60,062 nt of DNA from Trichocoleus desertorum ATA4-8-CV12 (GTDB lineage Bacteria > Cyanobacteriota > Cyanobacteriia > FACHB-46), in NCBI GenBank assembly GCA_019358975.1, contig JAHHIL010000030.1, forward strand, positions 1 to 60,062, written 5' to 3'. Every line of letters starts with the position of its first letter. Position 1 is the first letter of the stretch. This document shows positions 49,025 through 53,710 of the stretch, in pieces. Under the pieces are notes generated by a model. It did no database searches, was not told where the DNA came from, and worked only from the letters and a program-made list of their open reading frames with translations. The position numbers and the translations under genes were made by a program.

Positions 49025-49160
49025 GAAATTCTCCTAACAGTTGCCGTACAGGTAGCTGGTTAATGCTCTTTATGAAATGCTTTGCACAATCAGCATGCCA
49101 GCTTTTTGTGGTGCCTTCACCTGATCCGAGCAGGAATAGACAGACAATTTGCCATTATGC

Positions 49161-50348
49161 CTAATTTGCCGCCTTAATGTCAAGGTGCGATCGCGGTTGT
49201 CGCCGTTGTTGTACCCACAAACCCAGCCCCAAACCTACCAGCAAAATGCTAACGAAATAACCCAAGACAAGGAGGCGCGATCGCAATGGTGGCTCTATGC
49301 CTTCCACTTCAATTTCTTGGGCAACTTTGAAGGCTGAAAACTGACGAGCTGCATCCGGTTTTGGCGCGACTTCGATTTCGATTTGGTGGGGTGCGCCATC
49401 AAAAAACTGTTGCTGCCAAGCAAGCTTACCTTGGCGATCGGGGCTGGCTTGATGAGCAAATGCCACCCAACCTGCTTCTAAAGATTTGGCTTGGATGTTG
49501 AAGACAATATCTTGGACAGGTTGACCTGTTGTAGCGTCGATCGCCTGGACTGCGAGTTCCGCAGGTTCGCCCACGGTGGCATGGTGATGTCCTAGCAGCT
49601 TGACCTCTAAGCCTTGAGTGTTCAAGCTGCTAGGGATTGCGGCCTGCTCTCCATGAGCATGTTCATGGGAGTGCTCATGAGAGTGAGACAACTCAGCACT
49701 GATGTTGACTACGAGTAGAGCCGCGATCGCAACGACAATGGCTCCACTTAATAGTAAGCGAACGCGCTGCGGCGCAATTTCTCCTGGTTGTAGCTCTTGC
49801 TTGCCGCCAATCACCCAACCACCACCAAAGCCTACTCCCAACAGAATCACGACCAAAATGGCAAAGTTGCGATATTTGATCGAGTTCTCGGCGACGGGCA
49901 GCGTTAAGGTCTGCTGGAACGGGGTAAAAGCATTGGCAACAGTTGGTGTTACTTCAACTTGCAACTGGTACTTACCGCGAATCGGTAGCATCTGCTGGAA
50001 TTGCAGTTGGCCCTGAGGTGCGATCGCAGCCAAGTCTAGGAGCTGAGTGCCCTCAACCATAGGGAAATCGGTGGGCAACCAAGGATTTGCAGGTGGAGTC
50101 AAGAGCTTGACGTGAATGTTGGCATTTTGCAGCGGCTTGCCATTCACATCAAGTGCTTGTAGCGTCAACTGCACTGGTCGTTGGGGCTGCGCGGCTTCGG
50201 CCTCAAACGGCAGCAATTGGCTAGCGGGTGGTTCGGTTGCCAGTTTCACGGATGGCTGGACTGCTTGCGATCGCCCTACCGACCCATAGCCTAAAGCTCC
50301 TAGCAGCCCTAATAAGCTGAGGAGCGAAACAAGTTTAATTTTTGTCAT
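49161..50348 (-). CDS. Histidine-rich multi-span membrane protein in a B12-riboswitch operon (putative cobalt-related)
   Basis: A 395-aa protein of no family I know. It starts with a signal-anchor (5-21), then an Ig/YtkA-like beta domain (about 55-155, with LTLQALDVNGKPLQNANIHV), two membrane helices (160-181 and 197-217), a His-rich loop (SHSHEHSHEHAHGE, six His at 222-232), a second such domain (about 245-350, with a HHH at 254-256) and a last helix (358-380) with a short cytoplasmic tail. The loop beside helix 2 could bind Co or Ni. It follows the CbtB-like gene by 57 bp, where CbtA, the usual five-span partner, would be expected. Role in cobalt uptake is inferred from the riboswitch and neighbour. 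Confidence 0.55.
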   Translation of the reverse strand: MTKIKLVSLLSLLGLLGALGYGSVGRSQAVQPSVKLATEPPASQLLPFEAEAAQPQRPVQLTLQALDVNGKPLQNANIHVKLLTPPANPWLPTDFPMVEGTQLLDLAAIAPQGQLQFQQMLPIRGKYQLQVEVTPTVANAFTPFQQTLTLPVAENSIKYRNFAILVVILLGVGFGGGWVIGGKQELQPGEIAPQRVRLLLSGAIVVAIAALLVVNISAELSHSHEHSHEHAHGEQAAIPSSLNTQGLEVKLLGHHHATVGEPAELAVQAIDATTGQPVQDIVFNIQAKSLEAGWVAFAHQASPDRQGKLAWQQQFFDGAPHQIEIEVAPKPDAARQFSAFKVAQEIEVEGIEPPLRSRLLVLGYFVSILLVGLGLGLWVQQRRQPRSHLDIKAAN

Positions 50349-50405
50349 TGGTACTTAAAACCTTGAGGGTGCTGAGGATTGAGAATTCTGACGAAGCGCG
50401 AAATT

Positions 50406-50603
50406 CTAGTGGCAGCTAACGCTCAAGGTGTTGTGACGCAGCGAGTGCATGTGGTTATGAGCGGCAGGATAGGTGGAGAAATAAACCGTCCAGAGCGTCA
50501 ACGCACATAAGGAAGTAAATAGGGTGGCTTGCACAGGCACCGAAAGCGTCCAACGGATGGCCTGTTGCTGAAGAGATCCAGAAGTTAGGGATGCAGTTCT
50601 CAT
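50406..50603 (-). CDS. cbtB: CbtB-like cobalt transporter subunit
   Basis: A 65-aa single-span protein. One helix (about 22-44, VPVQATLFTSLCALTLWTVY) is followed by a His-rich C-terminus, PAAHNHMHSLRHNTLSVSCH (H49, H51, H53, H57, H65). This matches the HN-x-x-H-x-x-RH...CH pattern of CbtB, predicted cobalt transporter subunit typically found under B12 riboswitches. ATG 50603 has GAGG 6 nt before it. A cobalamin riboswitch lies directly upstream. Partner CbtA is absent next to it. Confidence 0.72.
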   Translation of the reverse strand: MRTASLTSGSLQQQAIRWTLSVPVQATLFTSLCALTLWTVYFSTYPAAHNHMHSLRHNTLSVSCH

Positions 50604-50635
50604 CGTGTACCTCGCACATTAGAGCTATAGAACTT

Positions 50636-50775
50636 CCCATCGGCGGGCATCCTGGCTCAGAAGTTTTCGCCTAGTTGCTGAAACTCCTTCACAGTTGCGG
50701 GACAGCGTCGGATTTACACCAAACTTTCCCCGTTACCTCTAGTGACTGTTCCTCACTAGAACCGCATGAGTAGGG
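50636..50775 (-). promoter_or_regulatory. Cobalamin (B12) riboswitch
   Basis: The minus strand contains the conserved cobalamin aptamer elements in order: ACGGGGAAAGTTTGGTGTAA with ATCC (50732-50709), GCTGTCCCGCAACTGTGA (50706-50689, the B12-box region), and GAGCCAGGATGCCCGCC (50659-50643). Outer pairing is less certain, so the ends are approximate. It precedes the CbtB-like gene; B12 would switch the operon off. Confidence 0.92.
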
Positions 50776-50828
50776 CAATCATATCACTGTTTATTGACAC
50801 AAAACTGCGATCGCGTCTCTTGGCAGTC

Positions 50829-52666: not shown

Positions 52667-53710
52667 CTAGATACCTAAAGGCGCGAGCCAACCCCTTAAG
52701 AAGTAGTACACCGAGAGCAAGTACTCCTCAATTACGCGAGTTGTGATCACGAGAGTATCGGCACTAGGGACAAAATCCGCAAGCCGCAATCTGCGCCTGA
52801 GATTGCCACCCGACTCAAAGGTATAAAAGTTGGTGGGTCGAGGAATGACTCGAATGCCAGCTCTGGCAAAGGTTAGAGCTGCTCGCCGAGTGTTGGTCGC
52901 TGAGGTGACTAAGATGACGCGATCGCCCAGTCGCCGCTCCATTAAAATTCGGCCCACCGCTACGGCACTGGTTCGCACATCTACACCAGTCGGCTCCACT
53001 ACAATATCGTCCCGAGCCACTCCCATATTGATCAGCAAAGTTTCAATATCCCTTGCTTCCACAATTTCCTCAGGCTTGCCTTGTAAATCGCCCCTCGGAC
53101 CTGCACTAACAATCACCAAAGGTCGATTCCCCAGCCGCAGTTGATCTTGATACAGTTGAGCGGCGTAAATAATGCGATCGCCCGTATCAGTCAGTTGAAT
53201 TTGCCGCCGATACGGTAGATTTGCCTGCGTGGTTCCCCACCCCAACACCGCGATCGCGGCGGCTGTTTGCTCTTCTGGCGGTGTCAATGTAGTAGGGCAC
53301 TGGAGATCACAAAGTTCTCGCCGTTGCTGATCGAACTGGATAGCAGATTGCTCAGTTTTTTGAGCTAAAGCGTAAGCCACAAAGGGAGTACTAGAAATCA
53401 ACAGAATGAGTAGGGCCGCGATGACTAAAGTACCACCTGGTTTCTTGAGCCCACCTTTGTCCATCTTGGCAGCAGCACTGGCTAGTAGCAGTAACGACAA
53501 GCCGAGTGGCTTAAAAGGCAGCGATAGCACACTCCAAACGGTAGAGACAATTCGACTGGTCGGCGTTAGGAAGGCCAGGATGATGAACAACACCATCACA
53601 AAGGCACCGAGCCAGGTGTAGTACTCCTTCGGAATCAGCTTCTGGAGGACGTACCAAATAATTATGCCAACTAGCAGCCACAGCAGAACTAACGTTAATA
53701 GTTCAAACAT
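52667..53710 (-). CDS. YdcF-family (DUF218) membrane protein
   Basis: A 347-aa protein. Residues 1-120 hold four membrane helices; the DUF218 domain follows at about 145 (AAAIAVLGWGTTQANLPYRR), with VIVSAGPRGDLQGKPEEIVE, EARDIETLLINMGVARDDIV and VTSATNTRRAALTFARAGIR. The family includes ElyC/SanA, which act in envelope and peptidoglycan homeostasis. Role here is unknown. ATG 53710 is used. Confidence 0.85.
   Translation of the reverse strand: MFELLTLVLLWLLVGIIIWYVLQKLIPKEYYTWLGAFVMVLFIILAFLTPTSRIVSTVWSVLSLPFKPLGLSLLLLASAAAKMDKGGLKKPGGTLVIAALLILLISSTPFVAYALAQKTEQSAIQFDQQRRELCDLQCPTTLTPPEEQTAAAIAVLGWGTTQANLPYRRQIQLTDTGDRIIYAAQLYQDQLRLGNRPLVIVSAGPRGDLQGKPEEIVEARDIETLLINMGVARDDIVVEPTGVDVRTSAVAVGRILMERRLGDRVILVTSATNTRRAALTFARAGIRVIPRPTNFYTFESGGNLRRRLRLADFVPSADTLVITTRVIEEYLLSVYYFLRGWLAPLGI

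What the first reader, a model, noticed from the sequence alone, without database searches (positions are those of the whole stretch)
49161..50775. B12-riboswitch operon with CbtB-like gene and a novel His-rich membrane protein in place of CbtA
A cobalamin riboswitch (about 50775-50636) leads into a 65-aa CbtB-like gene with the H/H/RH...CH tail, then a 395-aa membrane protein with two beta domains, two central helices beside a six-His loop, and a C-terminal helix. CbtA, the usual five-span partner of CbtB, is not here. Being under B12 control and beside CbtB, the 395-aa protein is a candidate cobalt-binding or cobalt-permease partner, a possibly undescribed cobalt-uptake variant.
Basis: partly seen in the sequence, partly recalled or inferred. 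Interest (0 to 1): 0.82.

Follow-up and report, generated by a model that had tools for sequence, protein, structure and literature searches.

The report
B12-switched cobalt-acquisition gene pair
This cyanobacterium carries a pair of genes, shut off by a vitamin-B12-sensing RNA, that probably helps the cell collect cobalt for making B12; one partner belongs to a membrane-protein family that none of the libraries searched names, and in cyanobacteria it stands where other bacteria keep the CbtA cobalt permease.

Summary
A cobalamin riboswitch (RF00174, 59.4 bits, 50626-50781 minus) leads into a 65-aa CbtB (PF09489, 27.7 bits, cut-off 27) and a 395-aa membrane protein, P395, that matches no Pfam or NCBIfam family. 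The pair is a conserved unit. In 291 cyanobacterial genomes P395 occurs in 45, and all 45 also carry cbtB beside it. CbtA is over its cut-off in none. A B12 riboswitch directly precedes 35 of 46 module loci; nearly all the rest (mostly Nostocales) have lost it. Some operons tie the pair to cobalt and B12: riboswitch-cbiX-cbtB-P395; riboswitch-cbtB-P395-cobW-..-cobG-..-cobH-cobI; cbtB-P395-cbiMN-cbiQ-cbiO. The window's genus lacks CbtA and CbiM; two of three genomes lack HupE; the complete one also lacks NicO. AlphaFold shows a tandem duplication (TM-beta-TM twice) with two periplasmic Ig/YtkA-like domains. The six-His loop is not conserved; the conserved metal-ligand candidates are the CbtB tail (HxxxHxxRHxxxxxxCH), P395 His321 and a TDFPxVEGT motif. 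Best reading: an inner-membrane cobalt-capture complex that substitutes for CbtAB. Whether P395 is the pore or feeds another permease is open. New variant of a known kind.

The parts
50626..50781 (-). Cobalamin riboswitch aptamer (RF00174)
   Evidence: cmscan 59.4 bits, full-length match 1-189
50604..50618 (-). Small hairpin (UGUG-CGAGGUA-CACG) showing the cbtB Shine-Dalgarno sequence in its loop; likely expression platform (L13-like)
   Evidence: loop CGAGGUA conserved before the cbtB start in most riboswitch loci; the stem varies with pairing kept, third pair G-C, C-G or U-A
50406..50603 (-). cbtB, 65 aa, one TM helix
   Evidence: PF09489 over its cut-off; adjacent to P395 in all 45 genomes
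50409..50459 (-). CbtB C-terminal tail HxxxHxxRHxxxxxxCH, the best-conserved metal-ligand candidate
   Evidence: H, H, R, H, C, H identical in 45 of 45 copies read
49161..50348 (-). P395, 395-aa membrane protein of an undescribed cyanobacterial family
   Evidence: family in 45 of 291 genomes, no Pfam/NCBIfam assignment, AlphaFold pLDDT 85.6
49893..50252 (-). P395 beta domain 1 (residues 33-152), with invariant P..P....DFP.VEGT and PIRG.Y motifs
   Evidence: alignment A1; separate model pLDDT 91.4; Foldseek best hit PmoD soluble domain, E 1.2e-4
49662..49883 (-). P395 central helix pair (residues 156-181 and 194-229); nearly invariant N215 and E219
49650..49694 (-). His-rich loop (residues 219-233); disordered and not conserved in the family
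   Evidence: pLDDT below 50 at 222-234; 0-7 His among 40 homologues
49302..49628 (-). P395 beta domain 2 (residues 241-349), FFDGAPH motif with the only invariant His (H321)
   Evidence: homologous to domain 1
49200..49286 (-). P395 C-terminal TM helix (residues 355-383), RR-rich cytoplasmic end
49154..49183 (-). Promoter-like site (TTGACA-18-CATAAT) inside the P395 3' end, ahead of rplU; marks the likely end of the unit
   Evidence: 11 of 12 matches; consensus match only

Best explanation
cbtB and P395 form a two-gene, inner-membrane cobalt-acquisition module that is switched off translationally when B12 is plentiful. Shown: riboswitch, gene order, co-occurrence, domain architecture, absence of CbtA. 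Inferred: B12 binding to the aptamer hides the Shine-Dalgarno hairpin of cbtB; both proteins sit in the cytoplasmic membrane with the CbtB tail and the two P395 beta domains in the periplasm; these capture Co(II) and hand it across the membrane to the B12 pathway (CbiX). Less certain: whether P395 with CbtB oligomers is itself the pore, or whether it is a capture and specificity subunit, analogous to CbiN/NikL, that feeds a separately encoded permease (CbiM, HupE, CorA).
For: Riboswitch directly upstream in 35 of 46 loci, a conserved SD hairpin. P395 and cbtB together in 45 of 45 genomes and on the same 14 plasmids. Operons with cbiX (G060: riboswitch-cbiX-cbtB-P395, with the cbtB stop overlapping the P395 start), with cobW-cobG-cobH-cobI (G191), cobW-DUF1636 (G112), CbiMN-CbiQ-CbiO (G282, G211). 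The other riboswitch of the own genome leads cbiX. Complete relative G025 has no HupE, CbiM, CbtA or NicO yet keeps B12 synthesis (CbiC). CbtB/CbtA knock-down in Methylococcus improved growth at cobalt levels found to be inhibitory (PMC13108547), and coenzyme B12 represses cbtB 43-fold in Pseudomonas denitrificans (PMC8123684). Beta domains resemble periplasmic metal-binding Ig-like/YtkA domains.
Against: No transport or binding data. No conserved metal ligand in the TM helices of P395. The His loop is not conserved. Eleven of 46 loci have no detectable riboswitch, so B12 control is not universal. The module often coexists with riboswitch-controlled HupE or CbiM. On plasmids it sits among copper/heavy-metal genes, and in Nostocaceae without a riboswitch it can sit beside CbiMN-Q-O whose metal (Ni or Co) is not known.
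Confidence: 0.68

Rival explanations
1. P395-CbtB is an accessory capture/specificity subunit, like CbiN or NikL for CbiM/NikM, and the ion crosses through a separate permease (CbiM, HupE, CorA or others). This is one of the two sub-readings of the best explanation.
For: TM-beta-TM units recall the CbiN topology (two TM helices, extracytoplasmic loop lying over the CbiM metal pocket; PMC7689651). CbiMN-CbiQ-CbiO genes directly follow P395 in G282 and G211. No conserved ligand in the TM helices. CorA is present in all four genomes that lack HupE and CbiM.
Against: No single permease travels with the pair; the pair is stand-alone in most loci. In G282 the CbiM already carries a CbiN-like part. 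G025 has no CbiM, HupE, NicO or CbtA, leaving only non-specific CorA or unknown carriers.
Confidence: 0.4
2. P395-CbtB is itself the permease, P395 taking the place of CbtA. This is the other sub-reading of the best explanation.
For: CbtB is kept and CbtA missing in every genome with the module; the G025 genome lacks the other named cobalt importers that were searched; cbtB and P395 overlap in several loci, which suggests translational coupling.
Against: Only about four helices in P395, no conserved His/Cys/Asp within them.
Confidence: 0.28
3. The metal is nickel, or both nickel and cobalt, at least in the Nostocales branch.
For: In Nostocaceae the riboswitch is gone and the pair may sit beside CbiMN-Q-O, while another CbiM in family f32 carries the B12 riboswitch. 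On the Anabaena cylindrica plasmid rppA/rppB lie 0.8 kb downstream of P395; in Synechocystis these are known as the nickel-responsive NrsRS (own knowledge).
Against: B12 riboswitch and B12-gene linkage in the other lineages, including the window's own.
Confidence: 0.2
4. It is a metal efflux or resistance module carried by mobile metal islands.
For: Fourteen plasmids, eight of the fifteen matching records conjugative, carry it, on pCHRO.01 next to a P-type ATPase, a multicopper oxidase and an ArsR/SmtB regulator; such genes recur near chromosomal copies.
Against: Repression by B12 would shut off an exporter when cobalt is ample; other copies lie in B12 operons.
Confidence: 0.07

Closest known systems
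CbtAB (PF09490 + PF09489), predicted cobalt transporter of proteobacteria, actinobacteria and others
   Same: A true CbtB with the His/Cys tail; B12-riboswitch control; links to cob genes
   Different: CbtA is absent; its place is held by P395, which is unrelated by sequence, has two large periplasmic beta domains and about four helices
CbiN / NikN / NikK-NikL subunits of cobalt and nickel ECF transporters
   Same: Membrane-anchored extracytoplasmic domain serving a metal transporter; occasional operon with CbiMN-Q-O
   Different: No sequence match; P395 has two tandem beta domains, pairs with CbtB, and mostly stands apart from any CbiM
YtkA-like domain proteins (PF13115), e.g. CtaK and the C-terminal domain of the copper importer YcnJ; PmoD and CrdA periplasmic copper proteins
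   Same: Weak profile matches in 11 of 40 homologues and fold similarity of the beta domains
   Different: Scores seen are below the Pfam cut-off; partner, regulation and gene context point to cobalt, not copper

Membership tests
CbtAB cobalt transporter | CbtB small subunit with conserved His-rich C-terminal tail | tested here: met
   PF09489 27.7 bits over cut-off; tail invariant in 45 copies
CbtAB cobalt transporter | CbtA permease subunit (PF09490) beside CbtB | tested here: not met
   No match over cut-off in 291 genomes; no CbtA among the families matched by 40 P395 members
CbtAB cobalt transporter | Control by a B12 riboswitch | tested here: met
   RF00174 59.4 bits directly upstream; 35 of 46 loci
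CbtAB cobalt transporter | Co(II) transport | not testable with these tools
   needs uptake assay
Cobalt/nickel ECF accessory subunit (CbiN, NikK/NikL) | Sequence family match (CbiN, NikN, DUF4198) | tested here: not met
   No Pfam/NCBIfam match of P395 to these, nor among the listed matches of its relatives
Cobalt/nickel ECF accessory subunit (CbiN, NikK/NikL) | Encoded with CbiM/NikM-Q-O | tested here: not met
   Not in the window, and the own genome has no CbiM; only in a few Nostocaceae
YtkA-like (PF13115) | Score over Pfam gathering cut-off | tested here: not met
   0 matches for P0001; 11 of 40 relatives at E up to 1, best 2.2e-5; the individual scores seen were below cut-off
YtkA-like / periplasmic metal-binding Ig-like fold | Shared fold of the beta domain | tested here: inconclusive
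   PmoD E 1.2e-4 and CrdA Z 9.3, but macroglobulin domains score as well (Z 10.6)
Cobalamin riboswitch (RF00174) | Score over gathering threshold and full model coverage | tested here: met
   59.4 vs 31.5 bits, positions 1-189

The most novel reading that the evidence does not exclude
CbtB and P395 alone make a complete Co(II) importer of a new type: no CbtA, no energy-coupling ATPase, a tandem-duplicated TM-beta-TM protein with periplasmic Ig-like metal-binding domains passing the ion to a pore formed with CbtB oligomers. In the window's genus it would be the main cobalt entry for B12 synthesis.
Probability: 0.27. Interest if true: 0.8.

Novelty: new variant of a known kind. Interest (0 to 1): 0.6.

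Why it matters
Cobalt entry in some B12-making cyanobacteria is unexplained: the complete relative G025, for one, has none of CbtA, CbiM, HupE or NicO. A conserved, riboswitch-controlled gene pair with a protein annotated everywhere seen here as hypothetical gives a specific, testable candidate, and shows that CbtB can be kept with a partner other than CbtA. It is also mobile, found on conjugative plasmids.

Tried and rejected
P395 as a distant CbtA: rejected by the PF09490 search of genomes and by Pfam scans of 40 members. P395 His loop as the conserved cobalt site: rejected by the alignment. Two apparent cbtB genes without P395 (G046, G155): rejected, weak hits (19-20 bits, below cut-off), the G155 one inside a 1204-aa frame, and no P395. 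Transthyretin and grappling-hook matches in PDB sequence searches: weak and generic. Whole-model Foldseek search: only generic Ig-like matches with low TM-scores. NicO in the own genome as the cobalt importer: the protein matches the RcnA-type nickel/cobalt efflux model (153.7 bits, below its cut-off of 195) and has no riboswitch. MFE folding of the leader is not significant (z -0.5) and was not used. A scan for intrinsic terminators gave nothing useful. My regular-expression count of riboswitches in the 80 genome-contig loci was too strict and is not used as a frequency. Rodionov 2006 was not held.

Full report
1. Observation. The window's minus strand holds, in order, a cobalamin riboswitch (50781-50626, RF00174, 59.4 bits against a gathering score of 31.5), a 65-aa ORF (50603-50406) that passes the PF09489 CbtB cut-off (27.7 vs 27), and a 395-aa ORF, here P395 (50348-49161), with no Pfam hit and only sub-threshold NCBIfam hits. 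The unit lies between an ABC transporter gene (52583-50829) and rplU-rpmA (rplU and rpmA recognised from their sequences). A promoter-like site at 49183-49154, inside the P395 3' end, may serve rplU (consensus match only).

2. The pair is a conserved unit. A search of 291 cyanobacterial genomes found P395 homologues of strong score in 45. The CbtB model rings in 46 of the same 291: 44 are P395 genomes, two (G046, G155) are weak, below-cut-off matches without P395 and are taken as spurious, and the 45th P395 genome (G007) has a readable cbtB just below threshold. In every one cbtB lies directly upstream of P395, usually within about 300 nt and sometimes overlapping it. Fisher's exact test on the strict HMM counts gives p about 1e-48; it ignores phylogeny. 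In the independent plasmid collection the same 14 records carry both genes. The best 80 of 146 relatives found in 84,980 species are all cyanobacteria; the other 66 could not be seen. Plasmid records name P395 'hypothetical protein' or 'unknown protein'.

3. Regulation. Of 46 module loci in 45 genomes, 35 have an RF00174 match just upstream; the remaining 11 have none even with permissive settings. I counted these by comparing the coordinates. Just before the cbtB start, most riboswitch loci share a mini-hairpin whose 7-nt loop CGAGGUA contains the Shine-Dalgarno sequence; its third stem pair is G-C in the window, C-G in most, U-A in others. This supports control of translation through SD sequestration; the kissing partner in the aptamer was not tested.

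4. Gene context. In G060 the order is riboswitch-cbiX-cbtB-P395, the cbtB stop overlapping the P395 start (cbiX is named from its resemblance to sirohydrochlorin chelatases). In G191 it is riboswitch-cbtB-P395-cobW-(unknown)-(DNA methylase)-cobG-(unknown)-cobH-cobI. In G112 P395 is followed by cobW and DUF1636, and in G117 and G098 by a cobW-like gene. In G282 and G211 P395 is followed by CbiMN, CbiQ and CbiO. The own genome has two riboswitches: one at this module, the other ahead of cbiX. On plasmid pCHRO.01 the pair lies in a metal island with a P-type ATPase, multicopper oxidase, ArsR/SmtB regulator and cation transporters, and such genes recur near other copies.

5. Other cobalt importers. 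CbtA is over its cut-off in none of 291 genomes. G000 and G025 have no HupE; G000, G025 and G040 have no CbiM; the single-contig genome G025 has no NicO either, and the NicO protein of G000 matches the RcnA-type efflux model, below its cut-off. All have CbiC, so B12 synthesis is probably kept, and CorA (tested in G000, G025, G060 and G094). In other genomes the pair coexists with riboswitch-linked HupE or CbiM (coordinates), so it is the sole recognised candidate in some and auxiliary in others.

6. Anatomy. AlphaFold on 40 homologues gives mean pLDDT 85.6: N-terminal helix 3-23, beta domain 33-152, helices 156-181 and 194-229, disordered loop 222-234, beta domain 241-349, C-terminal helix 355-383. 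The two halves are homologous (HHalign probability 94.5, E 7.8e-8), so P395 arose by tandem duplication of a TM-beta-TM unit. Positive residues on the 181-194 loop and the C-terminus put both beta domains outside (inference). Invariant residues include D94, E99, E154, K158, R358 and one His, H321, in FFDGAPH. The His-rich loop varies from 0 to 7 His and is Met-rich in some. No His, Cys or Asp is conserved in the helices. The CbtB tail H-x3-H-x2-RH-x6-CH is identical at all ligand positions in 45 copies. YtkA-like profiles ring weakly in 11 of 40 members, and the first beta domain alone is closest by Foldseek to the PmoD copper-protein domain, with CrdA, FetP and macroglobulin domains also near: a common fold, suggestive only.

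7. Function. What is shown: riboswitch, conserved pairing, gene links to cobalt insertion and B12 synthesis, absence of CbtA, architecture. What is inferred: cobalt capture in the periplasm and delivery across the membrane. For CbtB there is outside evidence of a cobalt role: CRISPRi of cbtB improved growth of Methylococcus at cobalt levels shown to be inhibitory (PMC13108547) and coenzyme B12 repressed cbtB 43-fold in P. denitrificans (PMC8123684). Against a pore in P395 alone is the lack of conserved ligands in the membrane; against a mere accessory role is the lack of any fixed permease partner.

8. Novelty. P395 is an unnamed family in the libraries searched and its pairing with CbtB was not found in the papers searched, though many subscription papers are not held. 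I rate it a new variant of CbtB-type cobalt acquisition.

Noticed in passing
L161:2390-2637, L095:2508-2755, L104:2393-2640, L092:1032-1279 and other Nostocales loci: The leader of cbtB still resembles a B12 riboswitch (CGGTTTTAGTGG..CCACTAAAGGTAATGGGAAA .. AGCCGGAATGCCCGCCGATG) but lacks the GCCCGCAACTGT core and gives no Rfam hit; a decayed or altered aptamer.
   Followed up: partly
L109, L116, L122, L128 and other Nostocales chromosomal loci, about 35-65 nt before cbtB: A conserved dyad close to CAATCAA..GGCA..TGCC..TTTGATTG in place of the riboswitch; possible operator or RNA hairpin.
   Followed up: partly
L051 (G083), module upstream region: A short ORF resembling an IS200-type transposase interrupts cbtB between its N-terminal part and its CH tail.
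   Followed up: no
L066 (G157:C6): The P395 copy on a Pseudanabaena plasmid has in-frame stops and looks like a recent pseudogene, while its riboswitch scores very well (66.2 bits).
   Followed up: no
window 52667-53710: 347-aa protein with an N-terminal part like the septal-pore protein FraI (E 1e-43, below cut-off) and a C-terminal DUF218 domain.
   Followed up: no
L174:2310-3761: Own genome carries an RcnA-like NicO protein with a long His-rich loop; absent from the complete relative G025.
   Followed up: partly
L172 and L173 (plasmids pCHRO.01, pANACY.02): The module is carried by conjugative plasmids, next to metal genes on pCHRO.01 and to the rppA/rppB two-component genes on pANACY.02.
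   Followed up: partly
L103:1314-1463: A cobalamin riboswitch on the opposite strand about 1.5 kb upstream of a module copy that itself has none; its target was not identified.
   Followed up: no
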